Assembly: GCA_946497695.1 (NCBI GenBank)
Contig: CAMMLJ010000001.1
Coordinates: 124,001-188,000 of the forward strand
DNA length: 64,000 nucleotides
Source: an uncultured Clostridium sp.
GTDB lineage: Bacteria > Bacillota > Clostridia > TANB77 > CAG-508
Direction of reading: 5' to 3'
Positions 19,396 to 26,256 of this stretch are shown in pieces (the first letter of the stretch is position 1; every line of letters begins with the position of its first letter). The notes beneath the pieces are model-generated. The model did not search any database. It worked only from the letters and a program-made list of their open reading frames with translations, and was not told the DNA's origin. The translations under genes were made by a program, and so were the position numbers.

Positions 19396-19947
19396 TTATT
19401 TACCTTTATCCAATTTTGGTGTATTATCAACATTTTTAAAACTTAAATACCATGACATACCATTTCTATTTTTATTAATATTTTCATTCCTCTCACGTAA
19501 AGCATTAAATGTTTTAGGAGGAGGTACAATCATAGGATTTCCTGGAACCCAGTTAGCAGGGGTCATACAATTATTTTTATCAGCATATTGTAATGCTGTT
19601 ACAGTTCTTAATATTTCTGGGATATATCTACCTATATTCATAGGATAGACAAAAATACTTCTTATAATTCCTTTATCATCAATAATAAATACATTTCTAA
19701 CAGTTTCTGTAGAGCTTACATCATTAGAAATCATTCCATATTTTCTGGCGATAACTCCATTTTGATCTGCAATTATAGGAAAATTTACAATAAGACCTGT
19801 TTTTAAATAAATATCATAAAGCCAAGCAAGATGAGAATTTAAACCATCAACACTAATGCCAATAAGTTCTGTATTAATTTTCTTAAAATATGTATCAGCC
19901 TTAGCAAAACCAATTATTTCAGTTGTACATACCGGGGTAAAGTACAC
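19396..19947 (-). pseudogene. 1-Cys peroxiredoxin, 3' fragment cut off by the island
   Basis: The frame begins FTPVCTTEIIGFAKADTYF, the peroxidatic-cysteine loop of a Prx6-type peroxiredoxin, and continues through ELIGISVDGLNSHLAW, FPIIADQNGVIARKYGM, NVFIIDDKGIIRSIFVYP and NWVPGNPMIVPPP to the end. About 50 N-terminal residues (thioredoxin-fold start, HPGD) are missing. They are found intact at 26108-26256 on the same strand. True gene sequence ends at about 19935; the bases from there to the GTG at 19947 belong to the island's attachment arm. Unless the GTG start is used to make a crippled protein, this half is inactive until the island is excised. Confidence 0.93.
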
Positions 19948-19961: not shown

Positions 19962-21536
19962 TTAAATCATTTTATTAATATCAACTTTTAATCTAAATTT
20001 AATAGTTTTATCTCTATCAATATATATTTTATCAATAATCATTTGTAATATCATTTTGTTTGGCACGTCTGAATTTATAATATAATCAAAATACTCTATT
20101 GAAGTTTTTAGCTTATTTACTTTTTCTTCTAAATTCTTCTTTTCATCTTTTTCTAATAATGTCTGTATATAAGATATACTTTGCATCTTTTCTTTTTCTA
20201 ACTCTTTATATGTATTCTCAATAATTTTTCTTGCCATTTCGTTATTTGCAGATGCTAATTCTTTTATTTTTTGATTAACAAGCATTTTGTATTCTTCATT
20301 TAAAATATTTAATTTATTTTGCAATTTATATTTATTATTTTCTTTTTTATCTTGTTTTATTTCAATTTTTATATTTTTTATTTCTTCTAAATATTTCTGT
20401 TTTGTAAATTTTAAAAACTCTTTTAAATGAACTAAAATATCTTTTTCCTTTACTTCATGGCAATGACAAGCCTTTGTTCCAAATTGCCTGTACTTTGAAC
20501 AATCATAACCTTTCTCAACTACTTTTCTTCTAATCATAATTCCTGACATACCAGATCCACAATTATTACATATACACATTCCTGAAAAATAATAGTCTCT
20601 TTTTTTATTTGTGCTTGATGTATTTTGTTTTGATTTTTTAGTTCTTATTTCTTGTGCTAAATTAAATATTTCTTTTGAAATAATAGCTTCATGGTGATTC
20701 TCAAATATAAATTGTTCTTCTTTTGGGAGTTTCACAGCCTTGCCTCTTATATTTACAGTTCTTTTTTTATGAGTAATCAAAGTTCCAGTATAAATTTCAT
20801 TTTTCAAAATATTACTTATCATATCTTTTGTCCATTTTTCCTGTACTTTATGCTTATATATTCTACCTCTTTCTAAATGTTTTTCTCTATAATATTTAGA
20901 TGGTGTAGGATAATTATATTTTGTATTTAATTCTTGACTAATTCTTTGAAAACCCATTCTATCTTCGACATATAATTTGAATATAAGTTTAATAACTGGT
21001 TTTAGTTCTTCAATAACATATAGCATTGGTATATTATCTTTGAAAATTTTTTCATAACCATAGTAATTTCCCATTATAAGCCTTGCTGTTTTTTGTTTTG
21101 AATACATATGATCTCTTGTTTTTCTTGAACAATCTTTTACATATCTTTCATTAAACCAAGTTGTAATTCCTATGGTATCATCTCTGTCATTTAATACATC
21201 ATAAGAGCCACCCATTTCAGAAACTAAAATTAAGTTTTTTTGCATATTTTTAAATTCATCAATAAGTACCAAAACTTTTCCATTATTTCTTCCAATTCTT
21301 GATAAATCTTTTGCTATAACAACATCAATTTTTCCTCCCTTTACTTTTTCTAACATCTTTGTAAATTCAGGTCTATTAAAGGTATATCCCGAAACATTGT
21401 CATCTATGTAGAAGTCTTTATCTTCGATAATCCAATTACGAGTAGAAGCATAATCTTTAATAATTCTTTTTTGTTCTTCTATACTCGAATAATTTTCCTT
21501 ATCCTCATCTCTAGACAATCTACAATATCCGTGCAA
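19962..21536 (-). CDS. Large serine recombinase (site-specific integrase of the island)
   Basis: 524 residues. The N-terminal resolvase domain has YCRLSRDEDKENYSSIEEQK (catalytic serine just after the R in YCRLS) with the later conserved arginines in AKDLSRIGRN. A Recombinase domain follows (NYYGYEKIF, TPSKYYREK, KWTKDMISNILKNEIYTG). A zinc ribbon follows with cysteines in CICNNCGSGM and the YDCSKYRQFGTKACHCH region, then a coiled coil (about 410-500). Start is TTG at 21536 behind AAGGATGG; a stop lies two codons upstream in frame, so no longer start exists. It ends 4 bases from the island arm, the usual position for an integrase beside its att site. It catalyses integration at, and perhaps excision from, the peroxiredoxin gene. 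Confidence 0.93.
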   Translation of the reverse strand: MHGYCRLSRDEDKENYSSIEEQKRIIKDYASTRNWIIEDKDFYIDDNVSGYTFNRPEFTKMLEKVKGGKIDVVIAKDLSRIGRNNGKVLVLIDEFKNMQKNLILVSEMGGSYDVLNDRDDTIGITTWFNERYVKDCSRKTRDHMYSKQKTARLIMGNYYGYEKIFKDNIPMLYVIEELKPVIKLIFKLYVEDRMGFQRISQELNTKYNYPTPSKYYREKHLERGRIYKHKVQEKWTKDMISNILKNEIYTGTLITHKKRTVNIRGKAVKLPKEEQFIFENHHEAIISKEIFNLAQEIRTKKSKQNTSSTNKKRDYYFSGMCICNNCGSGMSGIMIRRKVVEKGYDCSKYRQFGTKACHCHEVKEKDILVHLKEFLKFTKQKYLEEIKNIKIEIKQDKKENNKYKLQNKLNILNEEYKMLVNQKIKELASANNEMARKIIENTYKELEKEKMQSISYIQTLLEKDEKKNLEEKVNKLKTSIEYFDYIINSDVPNKMILQMIIDKIYIDRDKTIKFRLKVDINKMI

Positions 21537-21580: not shown

Positions 21581-21814
21581 TTAGCATACATTGTCTGATA
21601 ATTCCACTTGTTTTGTAACAATTTTATTAAGAACTTCGGGATAGTTCTCTTTTCCTGTTACAAATATTCCTATTTTATACTTTTGTTTCTTATATTCTTT
21701 TATTTTATCTTGTATTTCTTGAATTTTTAACTCTTCTTCAGTTAAATAAATTTGCATATATTTTGTATTATAAATTTCATTAGAAGTAATTTGCATATTA
21801 CTTAACTCCTTCAT
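21581..21814 (-). CDS. Small protein encoded upstream of the recombinase, unknown
   Basis: 77 residues with a good ribosome site (AGAGAGAAATATT then ATG, with a second in-frame ATG). Charged predicted helix in the middle (EELKIQEIQDKIKEYKKQ) followed by YKIGIFVTGKENYPEVLNKI, a pattern resembling the small ORFs that sit before transposon recombinases. It might be a directionality factor or regulator, but I do not recognise a family. It ends 45 bases before the recombinase start, suggesting one transcript. Confidence 0.6.
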   Translation of the reverse strand: MKELSNMQITSNEIYNTKYMQIYLTEEELKIQEIQDKIKEYKKQKYKIGIFVTGKENYPEVLNKIVTKQVELSDNVC

Positions 21815-22126: not shown

Positions 22127-22156
22127 ATAAAAGATGCTGATTTCAGCATCTTTTAT
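22127..22156. terminator. Terminator of the cargo operon (minus strand)
   Basis: ATAAAAGATGCTGA (22127-22140) and TCAGCATCTTTTAT (22143-22156): perfect 14-bp stem with a 2-base loop just beyond the HD-domain gene end. Confidence 0.8.
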
Positions 22157-22189
22157 GTTATACAAAATTAATCTTGTATTATAATATAA

Positions 22190-22922
22190 TTAAAAATCAA
22201 AATCCAAATATGCATACTTTTTAGTTTTAAGTTGTAAATAGTTATCTATTTTCTCTTTAGCAAAATTGGAAATATCATTTATTCTCTTATAGGAATCAGA
22301 ATCTTCTACCAATGGTACTATATACCTTCTCTTAGCAGTTATACTAACACAATATTTATCATAAACTGGTTCATCACTTTCATTGATTTTAGTTGAATTT
22401 TCGAACATCTTAAAACATTTTGCAATTTTCTCGTTTTTACAATTTTCTATTCTGTTTATTACTTCTTGTTCAGATAAAGTATATAAATCTTTTTTTGTTA
22501 AAAATTTTTCCTCTGACATTTTCTTTACAGTATCTGCTAAAAATTGCATAGCTAATTTATCTTCATTTGATACCCATAATGGCCACAATTTGCTTGCACC
22601 ATCTATAAATTTTTCTGCTATATTTTTATCTTTAAATCCCAACTCTTCTATACCTTCTTCATTTTATCATATATGTTGTCAATTCCTCTGTAGATTCTTG
22701 AGTTTCATGATCTCCGTTCATAAAATCTATACAATGTTTAAATACAGGTGTACTAATATCATGAAAAAGTCCTGCAAGAGTTTGCTTCTTGTCTTTTGTA
22801 AAATTCCAAACAATCAAAGCAACTCCTATACTATGATCTAAATTTGAATAGAAAAACTTATTTTGAAATATTTTAGTATAATCTGTTCCACAACCCAAAC
22901 CAATTTTTCCTATTCTTTGCAT
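22190..22922 (-). pseudogene. HD-domain phosphohydrolase, broken by internal deletion and frameshift
   Basis: Two open frames abut. The first (22922-22659, 87 residues) has the HD-domain core KFFYSNLDHSIGVALIVW and AGLFHDISTP, then stops after TTYMIK. The second (22642-22190; coding sense resumes at about 22653 as NEEGIEELGFKDKNIAEKF) carries the C-terminal part through KLWPLWVSNEDKLAMQFLAD to YAYLDFDF. From memory of this HD family, roughly 100 residues between the halves are missing and the frame changes by one. HD proteins hydrolyse phosphate esters or nucleotides using a metal pair. The 5' end is also tight against the phosphatase gene, with no ribosome site, so it may be shortened there too. 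Confidence 0.7.
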
Positions 22923-22945
22923 TGCTGGTGTGTTTATATAATCAT

Positions 22946-23473
22946 TTAAAAAATTGTTTCAAAAATTTCTGCTGGTTGCATATCTCCACAATCACAAATA
23001 GATTGAAAAGCCATTTTATGGGCAACGACAATCACTTTATCATAATTATTTTTGTATTTATTTATAACAGATATGACTCTATTTCTTAATTGCTCTTTTG
23101 TTTCCCACTTTCTTTTTTCGTTAATTGGATAAACTCCATTGTTTCTAATATAATCATTATAGTACTCATGCATTTCCTCACTATTTTTGTATTGATATGT
23201 AAGGTCTGGTTGCCATTCTCTTATATCTGGCTCAACCACAATATCCAGTCCTGTTTCCTTAGATATTATACTAGCTGTTTGCAATGCTCTTGTATATGGC
23301 GAAGACACAATAATTTGCGCATTTTTTAATCTAATGTCTTTTGATGTTTCTATAACATCTTTTATTTTATCTTTTTGTAAAGGTGCTAAATCATGTCCTT
23401 GTCCGATAAAACCATGAGTATCCCCATATGTATAATCTGGTTTACCATGTCTGATTAAATAAAATATTGCCAT
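22946..23473 (-). CDS. Histidine phosphatase (phosphoglycerate-mutase-like) family protein
   Basis: 175 residues. FYLIRHGKPDYT contains the catalytic RHG histidine, SSPYTRALQTASII the second arginine, and VVAHKMAFQSI the C-terminal catalytic histidine. The family removes phosphate from sugars, nucleotides or proteins; the substrate is not predictable. Start ATG 23473 is chosen because GGAGG is 7 bases before it; the ATG at 23479 is too close. It lies third in the cargo operon after the P-loop kinase (79-base gap) and 23 bases before the HD-domain gene. Confidence 0.88.
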   Translation of the reverse strand: MAIFYLIRHGKPDYTYGDTHGFIGQGHDLAPLQKDKIKDVIETSKDIRLKNAQIIVSSPYTRALQTASIISKETGLDIVVEPDIREWQPDLTYQYKNSEEMHEYYNDYIRNNGVYPINEKRKWETKEQLRNRVISVINKYKNNYDKVIVVAHKMAFQSICDCGDMQPAEIFETIF

Positions 23474-23552
23474 ATTCATACCTCCAATTAATATAACTTA
23501 TTTTTTCTTTTTCTAATATTTTATTATACTTATTGCTTTTTTTAAATATTTT

Positions 23553-24176
23553 TTACAAATCTCTATCCGGGAATTCTTGAACATTTAAAATTTGTGCAAT
23601 AATTCTACTAACATACATTTTATCTTTTCCAACAGTAGATATTCTTCTGCTATTAGGTATTTTTCTTGATATTGTTTCATAAAACTCATTTTGATATTCT
23701 GTAAACAAACTATCTAACCATGATTTTGATAATTCATCCTCTCTTGTTTTATTTCGCTGAATTATACTATCATTATTAGCATACAGAAAAATGTATTCAT
23801 CTGGTTTCAGAAGTTTCTCATCATTAAATAATTTTTCATATTGATTCATTGCATGTCTAAATGTTGGATATTTTCCTAATTTTTCAAAAGCATAACTGAT
23901 TGCTACTGTTGATAATGCACATCTATCTAAAATAACATTTTTTCCACTTAGTGCAAATTTAGTTGCTTTATTCATTCTTCGTCTTTCAACTTCAAAAAAG
24001 AATAATTGGTTTTTTATTTCTTGTTGATAATTTTGAGATGGTTCTGGTGGATTTTTTTCGTATACCATACATTCATCAATCACTATGCAATTATTATAAT
24101 TTTTCATATTTTGGCAAGTTGTTGTTTTACCAGAATTAGATGGTCCTTCTACTACAATTATTTTTCCTCTATTCAT
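23553..24176 (-). CDS. P-loop kinase, thymidylate/deoxynucleoside kinase-like
   Basis: 207 residues. Walker A is IIVVEGPSNSGKTTT at the N-terminus. Other kinase landmarks are GKNVILDRCALSTVAISYAF (DR-type motif of dNK/TMK proteins), FLYANNDSIIQRNKTRE (lid arginines) and DSLFTEYQNEFYE. The layout fits phosphoryl transfer to a nucleoside, nucleotide or sugar. It is not the housekeeping tmk: it is divergent and sits in an island operon, 8 bases after the glycosyltransferase stop with AGGAAT as ribosome site. It may act with the downstream phosphatase and HD hydrolase on one phosphorylated metabolite. Confidence 0.82.
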   Translation of the reverse strand: MNRGKIIVVEGPSNSGKTTTCQNMKNYNNCIVIDECMVYEKNPPEPSQNYQQEIKNQLFFFEVERRRMNKATKFALSGKNVILDRCALSTVAISYAFEKLGKYPTFRHAMNQYEKLFNDEKLLKPDEYIFLYANNDSIIQRNKTREDELSKSWLDSLFTEYQNEFYETISRKIPNSRRISTVGKDKMYVSRIIAQILNVQEFPDRDL

Positions 24177-24184
24177 ATTTATTC

Positions 24185-25612
24185 CTACCTTACAGTTTTA
24201 TATTTTTCCTTCTTTCGTGATAATAGAGAATATATTGGTCCTACATTTGAAATTGTAGTTGATATTATTGTTCCTATTAAAATTTTTATTTTATTTTTTA
24301 ATGCTATTTTTGTTAGTTTTTCAATTAATATAATGGTACTTCCATACTCTAATAGAATCATTACAGAATATGATAATATAGCTAACAAAATCATTATTAT
24401 GTTCTGGTTTAATAAAGATATTATAAGTGTATAAAAAAATGCTAGTGGTAAACCAAGCCAGGTCAAATTCATTCGTACTCTTTGTATTAACCAACCTATG
24501 CTACTTACATTGATTTTTCTATTTTGTTTAAAAACATCTTTAAACATTTTTAAACATTCAAAAGAAGTTCTAAACCATACAGCATTTTGTTTTGTTAATA
24601 TAGTTAAATACTTTGGAGATTGCATAAGTTCCAATGTCTTTATTGGATGAATCGATATATCTTTATTTCTTAACACATAACTCATATATATATCTTCGCA
24701 CCAATACTTCGTTTCAAATCCTCCAAGTTGTTTTAATATATCAACTCTAACGTACATTCCATGTCCGACCACATAGGTGTACAAGAATTTATTTGGAAAA
24801 TATGAATTTATTAATCCATATCTAAGCTCAAAATTGGATTGATATATAGCAAATCCTTTCATTAAATTAGATAATTCATTCCAATTACTTATCGGAACAG
24901 AATATTGTTGTATAACTTTTGGTCTATTATTTCTATTTATTGTTTCTAAGACTTCTTTTATTGTATCTTTATTTGGAATACTATCTGCATTATATACTGA
25001 AAAATAATAATTTTTCTCGTCTTTAAATTTAAAATTGTTTAATACGTAATTCAACTGATCTGCCATTATTCCTTCATTATTTGGATAATGAAAATGATAT
25101 AGTCTTTCTTCTAAGTGATTTCTAATTATAAAATCCTTTATTAAATTATTAGTAGTTTTTGAGTTTTGAATTTTATCATTTACAATTTGATTTATATCTT
25201 TAGATTTTCTGTATTTTAAAATTTCTTGAATTTCATTAGTAGATAATATCTTATTGTATTTATTAATTAATTTTTGTAATTCTACATTATTATTAATATC
25301 TTCTATAAACTGTTCTTTTAAGTATAAATTTTTTTCTTTTTCAAACTCTTCTTTTTGTGTTGTTACAACCAAAAGCTTTACATTATCTAAATTGCTAGTT
25401 ATTTTCAAGAAATGTTCTAATGTATCAATAATGATATCTTGTTCTCTTAAACAAGGAATAACAATAAGAATATTAGGTTCTTTTTCATTTTTGGTTATTT
25501 CTTTTTTTGGTTTAGAATTTTGTTTACAAAGATATTTAATAGTTCTACATACACACCAAACTCCTGTTAGAAATTCTAAAACTAGAATTATGTAATATAC
25601 TGTTATACTCAT
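24185..25612 (-). CDS. Processive family 2 glycosyltransferase with membrane domain
   Basis: 475 residues from the ATG at 25612, selected for GGAGGGG five to six bases upstream; an in-frame longer reading exists but lacks a ribosome site. One N-terminal helix (ITVYYIILVLEFLTGVWCV), then a GT-A domain: ILIVIPCLREQDIII, VYNADSIPN (DxD-type), YVVGHGMYVR, LGGFETKYWCEDIYMSY (ED catalytic base). A long charged insert of about 100 residues separates the first two motifs. Three to four C-terminal helices follow. This is the cellulose/hyaluronan-synthase-like plan, so a surface glycan or glycolipid product is likely. First gene of the cargo operon. Confidence 0.87.
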   Translation of the reverse strand: MSITVYYIILVLEFLTGVWCVCRTIKYLCKQNSKPKKEITKNEKEPNILIVIPCLREQDIIIDTLEHFLKITSNLDNVKLLVVTTQKEEFEKEKNLYLKEQFIEDINNNVELQKLINKYNKILSTNEIQEILKYRKSKDINQIVNDKIQNSKTTNNLIKDFIIRNHLEERLYHFHYPNNEGIMADQLNYVLNNFKFKDEKNYYFSVYNADSIPNKDTIKEVLETINRNNRPKVIQQYSVPISNWNELSNLMKGFAIYQSNFELRYGLINSYFPNKFLYTYVVGHGMYVRVDILKQLGGFETKYWCEDIYMSYVLRNKDISIHPIKTLELMQSPKYLTILTKQNAVWFRTSFECLKMFKDVFKQNRKINVSSIGWLIQRVRMNLTWLGLPLAFFYTLIISLLNQNIIMILLAILSYSVMILLEYGSTIILIEKLTKIALKNKIKILIGTIISTTISNVGPIYSLLSRKKEKYKTVR

Positions 25613-25757
25613 AAATCCCCTCCATATACAAAAATGAAGAAATAACTCCAAGTTAAATCTTCATCATTAGTTACAATTATTATATTATTTGATAATTATT
25701 TGATAATTTTTTGAATATGCATATATGATATTTACCATTTTTTTCCATTTATAAATA

Positions 25758-25859: not shown

Positions 25860-26020
25860 TAGAATCAAAGTTACTCTTTATAAATTTTGCAGGATCAGGG
25901 AGACGTCTCGTATTCCGATAACTGCCTAAAAGCGTGGCTTTTAGCAGGGTGCTATTTAAAAATGAAGTAGACTTTTTTTTCTTTCTAACCAATTGCTCCA
26001 CAATCGATTCTGTGGCACTT
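25860..26020. other. GC-richer structured end region of the island
   Basis: This stretch is clearly richer in G+C than its surroundings and has several short hairpins: CTAAAAGC-GTG-GCTTTTAG (25926-25944), the palindrome GAGACGTCTC (25900-25909) and CCACA/TGTGG (25998-26002, 26011-26015). A 71-codon minus-strand frame crosses it, but its sequence looks like translated structure, not a protein. It may be a recombination or element-end sequence or a structured RNA. Confidence 0.4.
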
Positions 26021-26079: not shown

Positions 26080-26256
26080 TTATTCATCCAAAGATGATGA
26101 CTTTACGGGTGTAAAATCGCCGGGGTGTGAAAAAAATACTACCCATTTACCTTTATAATTAGAAAGAGAAATGTCTCCCATTGTAGAAACAGCATCAAAA
26201 TCTGGAGCTTCCATACCAATTTTTAAATTATTATTCATCATTATTTCATAATCCAT
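26080..26256 (-). pseudogene. 1-Cys peroxiredoxin, 5' fragment with promoter-proximal start
   Basis: 58 residues as read: [20 protein letters not shown] is followed by [20 protein letters not shown] and SHPGDFTPV, then an island-derived tail KSSSLDE and stop. The first 51 residues are the thioredoxin-fold start of a 1-Cys peroxiredoxin up to the residue before the peroxidatic cysteine; the rest is at 19396-19935. Ribosome site AAAGGAG is 9 to 10 bases before the ATG, so this half is still expressible. The fusion to 7 island residues yields no active site. Confidence 0.92.
26085..26110. other. attR-type junction of the island
   Basis: Island arm CATCCAAAGATG (26085-26096), ACTTTAC (26100-26106), then the GG at 26108-26109 and host sequence. 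With the left arm it forms an almost perfect inverted repeat. Confidence 0.8.

What the first reader, a model, noticed from the sequence alone, without database searches (positions are those of the whole stretch)
22190..25612. Uncharacterised island cargo: glycosyltransferase, nucleotide-type kinase, histidine phosphatase, HD hydrolase
The four genes form one operon with its own promoter and terminator, and are the only cargo. A membrane processive glycosyltransferase joined to three small-molecule phosphate enzymes is an unusual set. It suggests synthesis and turnover of a phosphorylated nucleotide or sugar feeding a surface polymer, or a phage-defence or competition trait. This is my best candidate for an undescribed system.
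Basis: inference. Interest (0 to 1): 0.7.

Follow-up and report, generated by a model that had tools for sequence, protein, structure and literature searches.

The report
Mobile sugar-transferase and kinase gene cassette
A small jumping DNA island has cut a bacterium's peroxiredoxin gene in two, and it carries a rare, uncharacterised pair of genes (a membrane sugar-transferase and a nucleotide-like kinase) with helper phosphatases; the same pair recurs in other gut bacteria and probably alters the cell surface, though nobody has tested what it does.

Summary
The cargo is real, but one of its four genes is dead. On the minus strand lie an intact membrane GT2 glycosyltransferase (25612-24185), a dNK/TMK-fold kinase (24176-23553) and a histidine phosphatase (23479-22946). 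The 'HD hydrolase' is a pseudogene: relative to the intact homologue it has lost its start and 212 bp carrying a metal ligand. The set is not unique to this genome. Two relatives hold it complete or degraded. A GT2+kinase core recurs in every informative locus found (12 GT2 loci from a scan of 84,980 species), usually with a PHP or histidine phosphatase, often with a nucleoside deoxyribosyltransferase and a queuosine-precursor-type transporter, several times beside serine recombinases, and once inside a Collinsella polysaccharide locus. The carrier is a roughly 6.17-kb island inserted just before the peroxidatic Cys codon of a peroxiredoxin gene. It belongs to a clade of large-serine-recombinase islands at that same codon in many species, with recombinase DNA 95-99.7% identical where host peroxiredoxins differ by 13-35%, and with changeable cargo in a fixed slot. 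Most likely the cassette modifies a surface glycan, with the kinase and phosphatases handling a nucleotide-like building block. The function is inferred; the modularity and mobility are shown.

The parts
26104..26256 (-). N-terminal part of the interrupted peroxiredoxin gene (51 codons, ends ..HPGDFTPV)
26085..26121 (-). attL: host GGCGATTTTACACCCGTA joined to element AAGTCATCATCTTTGGATG (approximate limits)
25865..25976 (-). block B: conserved non-coding element (CTAAAAGCCACGCTTTTAG hairpin, GCAG..CTGC), left edge of the cargo slot in this island family; its 5' part is missing here
24185..25612 (-). membrane GT2 glycosyltransferase, 475 aa, ATG start at 25612 (not the TTG at 25651); intact; motifs NADS, WCED, Q-N-A-V-W
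23553..24176 (-). P-loop kinase of the deoxynucleoside/thymidylate kinase fold, 207 aa, intact
22946..23479 (-). histidine phosphatase (branch 1), 177 aa, intact
22190..22922 (-). HD-domain phosphohydrolase pseudogene (fragments 22922-22659 and 22642-22190; start and 212 internal bp deleted)
22127..22157 (-). 13-pair hairpin with T-rich tail behind the cargo operon, candidate terminator, also folds on the + strand
21581..21814 (-). ORF of 77 aa, found immediately upstream of the LSR in the prx islands examined; function unknown, candidate directionality factor (inference)
19962..21536 (-). large serine recombinase (Resolvase + Recombinase + Zn ribbon), 524 aa, TTG start shared with L081
19925..19962 (-). 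attR: element ACATCCAAAGATGTGTA joined to host CTTTACCCCGGTATGTAC (approximate limits)
19396..19938 (-). C-terminal part of the interrupted peroxiredoxin gene (TPV-C..., begins just before the peroxidatic Cys)

Best explanation
A large-serine-recombinase island about 6.17 kb long, inserted at a fixed codon of the host peroxiredoxin gene, carries in its cargo slot a cassette from a small, uncharacterised family of GT2+kinase modules. Shown: the island's boundaries and empty site, the recombinase family's preference for this codon, its transfer between species, different cargo on a near-identical recombinase backbone, and the recurrent pairing of this GT2 with this kinase. Inferred: the GT2 is a membrane transferase with a cytoplasmic active site that adds a sugar-like unit to a lipid carrier or nascent cell-surface glycan. 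The kinase activates or recycles a nucleoside-like or sugar-like building block, and the phosphatases (HisPhos here, PHP elsewhere) remove phosphate from the product or by-product. The change of surface would be a strain-variable trait (phage, immune or competitor recognition) of the kind that islands shuffle. The dead HD gene means the cassette must work without it in this strain, or it is decaying.
For: Island: prx split at GDFTPV|C with direct-repeat-like junctions and inverted attP arms; in genus-mate G161 an intact prx 97% identical to the joined halves. LSR clade at the same codon in many genomes. LSR DNA 95-99.7% identical where prx DNA is 65-87%. Nearest LSR (L081, 96% aa) carries Abi_2 instead. 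Cargo lies between block B and ORF77 in several islands. Module: four-gene set in G114, remnants in G262; GT+kinase together in all informative loci of 12 found. Purifying selection. Surface-glycan reading: GT2 fold and membrane helices; Collinsella copy within a Wzx/pyruvyl-transferase/epimerase locus. Nucleotide-like substrate: dNK/TMK fold; NDT, queuosine-precursor-type transporter and PHP resembling nucleoside bisphosphatases in sister modules.
Against: No donor, acceptor or substrate is known. No sugar-activating nucleotidyltransferase, flippase or polymerase lies in the cassette. The sister modules' NDT and transporter point to nucleobase salvage rather than glycans. The HD gene is dead here and the kinase is frameshifted in G114, so copies may be decaying (MAG assembly error is possible). 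The QxxRW Arg is absent. Only one of 12 loci lies in a recognisable polysaccharide locus.
Confidence: 0.4

Rival explanations
1. The cassette belongs to a nucleobase/nucleoside salvage route: sister modules import a 7-deazapurine-like base or nucleoside (QPTR/VUT), phosphorylate it with the kinase and release the base with the NDT-family enzyme, perhaps a queuine-salvage route; the GT2 makes a glycosylated derivative.
For: VUT scores above the TIGR00697 queuosine-precursor transporter cut-off and NDT is PF05014; they lie in one gene row with kinase and PHP in L030, L033 and L034; TGT is present in all 9 genomes tested; hydrolysis of Q-5'-MP is a known need in q salvage (PMC11130926).
Against: The window cassette has neither transporter nor NDT, and no Vut_1 protein was found in its genome; no preQ1 riboswitch near the modules; a membrane GT2 has no role in Q salvage as I know it; L028, L029 and L031 lack the transporter.
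Confidence: 0.12
2. The cassette is an anti-phage or competition system that alters nucleotide pools.
For: A sister island on a 96%-identical recombinase carries Abi_2; kinase weakly matches the PADLOC candidate PDC-M51B; HD phosphohydrolases can deplete dNTPs (general knowledge).
Against: No PADLOC match for the other proteins; HD is dead here and its family is a common, mostly stand-alone chromosomal gene in the bacterial family (108 of 243 genomes).
Confidence: 0.12
3. The cargo is a chance, decaying collection of genes without joint function, carried passively by an active recombinase.
For: Different genes are broken in different copies (HD in window, kinase in G114, most of the set in G262); cargo in sister islands is heterogeneous.
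Against: GT+kinase association in every informative locus across divergent genomes and dN/dS 0.13-0.19 argue for a functional unit.
Confidence: 0.2
4. The island is a gene-intervening element of the skin/gin kind whose regulated excision restores peroxiredoxin.
For: The split is frame-restoring; best NCBIfam match of the LSR is XisF, below cut-off; gin in B. cereus gerE is a non-phage precedent with site-specific recombinases (PMC5595907).
Against: LSR and prx divergences do not track (r 0.19) and insertions look recent and independent; pn/ps of interrupted C halves 0.33 vs 0.20 intact; some interrupted genes are truncated.
Confidence: 0.12

Closest known systems
Site-specific large serine recombinase islands (survey in PMC10083194)
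   Same: LSR with Resolvase, Recombinase and Zn-ribbon domains, attL/attR inside one target gene, empty sites in relatives, variable cargo
   Different: target is the codon before the peroxidatic Cys of a peroxiredoxin; conserved block B and ORF77 bound a cargo slot; I found no paper describing this site
gin gene-intervening element in B. cereus gerE (PMC5595907)
   Same: non-phage element with site-specific recombinase, interrupting a host gene in a frame-restoring way
   Different: one recombinase, not three; target is not a sporulation gene; excision not shown; metabolic cargo
BcsA/HAS/PgaC-type processive GT2 enzymes
   Same: GT-A fold with N- and C-terminal membrane helices, catalytic Asp and ED motif
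   Different: QxxRW Arg missing; unknown donor and acceptor; matches only generic GT2 models and far below the PgaC cut-off
Thymidylate/deoxynucleoside kinases
   Same: P-loop, DR motif, fold (Foldseek E about 1e-10 to yeast TMK)
   Different: below the DTMP_kinase equivalog cut-off (39 vs 83 bits); paired with a GT2

Membership tests
Site-specific large serine recombinase island | LSR with Resolvase, Recombinase and Zn-ribbon domains | tested here: met
   PF00239, PF07508, PF13408 above cut-off
Site-specific large serine recombinase island | attL/attR flanking the element and an empty attB in a relative | tested here: met
   junctions and intact prx in G161 and others
Site-specific large serine recombinase island | movement between lineages | tested here: met
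   LSR nearly identical where host prx has diverged
Integrative and mobilizable element | relaxase or oriT for transfer | tested here: inconclusive
   no relaxase among the ORFs; block B is a conserved non-coding element of unknown role
Gene-intervening element (skin/gin) | programmed excision restores the gene | not testable with these tools
   frame would be restored, excision itself not observable
Processive GT2 (BcsA/HAS/PgaC) | Q(Q/R)xRW motif | tested here: not met
   Arg absent in 11 of 11 homologues
Processive GT2 (BcsA/HAS/PgaC) | GT-A domain with membrane helices | tested here: met
   model pLDDT 88.4; matches to BcsA, HAS, PcManGT
dTMP kinase | NCBIfam DTMP_kinase equivalog cut-off | tested here: not met
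   39.1 vs 83.25 bits
dNK/TMK-fold kinase superfamily | P-loop and fold | tested here: met
   invariant GKT and fold match
HD phosphohydrolase | H..HD..D metal ligands in one open frame | tested here: not met
   start deleted and D160 region deleted in the window copy
Known anti-phage systems (PADLOC) | match to system proteins | tested here: not met
   only weak kinase matches, best to candidate PDC-M51B
Queuosine/queuine salvage | transporter and nucleosidase present | tested here: not met
   absent from the window cassette; no Vut_1 in its genome; present in sister modules

The most novel reading that the evidence does not exclude
GT2+kinase (+PHP or HisPhos, NDT, transporter) is an undescribed pathway that builds a nucleoside-derived or phosphosugar-derived decoration onto a cell-surface glycan, and it circulates among gut Firmicutes as exchangeable cargo of site-specific recombinase islands, in this case one that lands at a fixed codon of peroxiredoxin.
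Probability: 0.2. Interest if true: 0.72.

Novelty: new variant of a known kind. Interest (0 to 1): 0.45.

Why it matters
It defines a rare but recurrent gene module of unknown chemistry that travels on recombinase islands in uncultured gut bacteria, and gives a testable two-gene core. It also exposes a family of recombinases with a well-delimited attachment site in a peroxiredoxin gene and a fixed cargo slot, useful for finding further accessory traits and possibly as integration tools.

Tried and rejected
Phage and plasmid collections: no kinase match; no GT relative in IMG/VR. Rfam: no match in the island or in eight sister-island loci; no riboswitch near sister modules. tRNA or tmRNA as insertion site: ARAGORN found none in the window; the site is the prx gene. 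Block B as a folded RNA: single-sequence fold not better than shuffles (z -1.0 to -1.5) and the covariation term does not favour the structure, so RNA structure is not claimed. Block B in plasmids: none. ParB-like partner protein: only weak PDB matches to 'putative transfer protein' (E 0.12 or worse). Regulated excision: not supported by the selection test. GT in the wider phylum: 0 of 397 other genomes sampled. PDB profile search for the GT: none. Literature on prx as an LSR target: none found.

Full report
What is there. The window lies in a 1.8-Mb, 52-contig draft assembly. The finding's genes are all on the minus strand: GT2 glycosyltransferase 25612-24185 (475 aa), P-loop kinase 24176-23553 (207 aa), histidine phosphatase 23479-22946 (177 aa) and HD fragments 22922-22190. 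Pfam supports the first three. They end in a strong hairpin at about 22127-22157 (z -5.1); promoter-like matches are at chance level.

The HD gene is broken. Aligned to the intact 349-aa HD gene of G114 (51% identical to another intact one in G278, both with H65, H89-D90 and D160), the window copy lacks the start region and a 212-bp block that shifts the frame and removes D160. HD relatives occur in 108 of 243 genomes of the same family, in the cases inspected mostly alone beside housekeeping genes, so HD looks like a recruited accessory and not the core.

The carrier. The peroxiredoxin gene (AhpC-TSA plus 1-cysPrx_C) is split: the N part 26256-26104 ends at GDFTPV, the C part starts TPV-C at 19938. 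Most genus mates have an intact gene; in G161 it is 97% identical to the joined halves. The window genome showed no other peroxiredoxin match at 1e-20. The element is about 6.17 kb and ends with ORF77 and a large serine recombinase. Recombinases at least 60% identical occur in about 30 of 243 family genomes. Of 20 loci inspected, most have the layout PRX_N - cargo - ORF77 - LSR - PRX_C, with C-half junctions at the same codon; some contigs end too early to tell, and one (L098) shows no prx. LSR DNA is 95-99.7% identical between islands whose host prx is only 65-87% identical, and the two divergences hardly correlate (r 0.19): independent, recent, horizontal insertions. Interrupted C halves have pn/ps 0.33 against 0.20 for intact genes, so there is no sign that the interrupted gene is maintained, although the comparison is coarse.

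A cargo slot. Comparing islands shows conserved ends and a second conserved block, block B (window 25976-25865), which in several islands stands directly in front of ORF77-LSR and in others is separated from it by cargo: GT-kinase-HisPhos-HD in the window, Abi_2 in L081, radical SAM-HD-kinase-carbamoyltransferase-PfkB in L086, a histidine phosphatase in L087. The window lacks the replication-initiator-like gene that sits left of block B in sister islands. Block B's role is unknown; a folded RNA is not established.

The module elsewhere. A scan of 84,980 species gave 12 loci encoding this GT2 and none in IMG/VR. The scan uses two peptide patterns, so it is a lower bound. The kinase accompanies the GT wherever the contig allows: G114 (with HisPhos, HD and a ParB-like protein), L028 (PHP), L029 and L031 (NDT, PHP), L030, L033 and L034 (ParB-like, VUT transporter, NDT, PHP), L032 (ParB-like, NDT, PHP), L036 (PHP), L037 Collinsella (methyltransferase), L038 (degraded, PHP). 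G262 holds a degraded copy of the window-type set, and a G153 contig ends in HisPhos (88%) and HD (98% to the G114 copy). LSRs of other kinds adjoin the G114, L034, L035 and L036 copies. Against G114, GT, kinase and HisPhos have dN/dS 0.13-0.19, so they have been under selection as proteins.

How it might work (inference). The GT model (pLDDT 88.4) has a GT-A domain between membrane helices, closest to cellulose and hyaluronan synthases, PcManGT and TarP. NADS and WCED are invariant, but the QxxRW Arg is absent, so processivity is doubtful. The kinase has the thymidylate/deoxynucleoside kinase fold but fails the dTMP kinase cut-off. Sister modules' NDT, VUT transporter and PHP point to nucleosides or nucleobases. 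The Collinsella copy lies next to Wzx-like, pyruvyl-transferase and UDP-GlcNAc epimerase genes. Together these favour a surface-glycan modification that uses a nucleotide-like or phosphorylated building block. A precedent for transfer of a phosphorylated sugar to a capsule followed by removal of its phosphate is known in Campylobacter (ribose-5-P from PRPP; PMC12096443); this is an analogy only.

Known or new. The carrier is a new variant of the known kind 'site-specific LSR island' (PMC10083194); the nearest precedent for a non-phage recombinase element that splits a host gene is gin (PMC5595907). The cargo module matches no named system. Caveats: nearly all loci come from metagenome assemblies, frameshifts may be assembly errors, and an assay of function is missing.

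Noticed in passing
window 26256-26104 and 19938-19396: Peroxiredoxin gene split at the codon before its peroxidatic Cys; no other copy found in the genome at E 1e-20, intact in most genus mates.
   Followed up: yes
window 21814-19962; L040-L068, L081-L100: Family-wide clade of large serine recombinases with a conserved 77-aa ORF upstream, inserted at the same prx codon and carrying different cargo.
   Followed up: yes
window 25976-25865; L081:12797-12886, L086:9502-9423 and others: Conserved non-coding block B of unknown role at the left edge of the cargo slot (CTAAAAGCCACGCTTTTAG); not in Rfam or plasmids.
   Followed up: partly
L081:13098-14027: Abi_2 abortive-infection gene as cargo on a recombinase 96% identical to the window's.
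   Followed up: partly
L086:4030-9133: Radical SAM, HD, thymidylate-kinase-like, carbamoyltransferase and PfkB genes as cargo in the prx-site island of G278: another uncharacterised small-molecule set.
   Followed up: partly
L098:5203-9660: NMT1/THI5-like ABC importer with HAM1-like, phosphoribosyltransferase and kinase genes beside a related LSR (not in prx).
   Followed up: no
L033:8306-11606, L034:8259-11555, L030:8213-10793: Gene row of queuosine-precursor-type transporter, nucleoside deoxyribosyltransferase, kinase and PHP (with a ParB-like protein in or near it): possible new nucleobase salvage route.
   Followed up: partly
L026:5319-6902: Second, degraded GT-kinase-PHP copy in G114 a few kb from an intact peroxiredoxin gene.
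   Followed up: no
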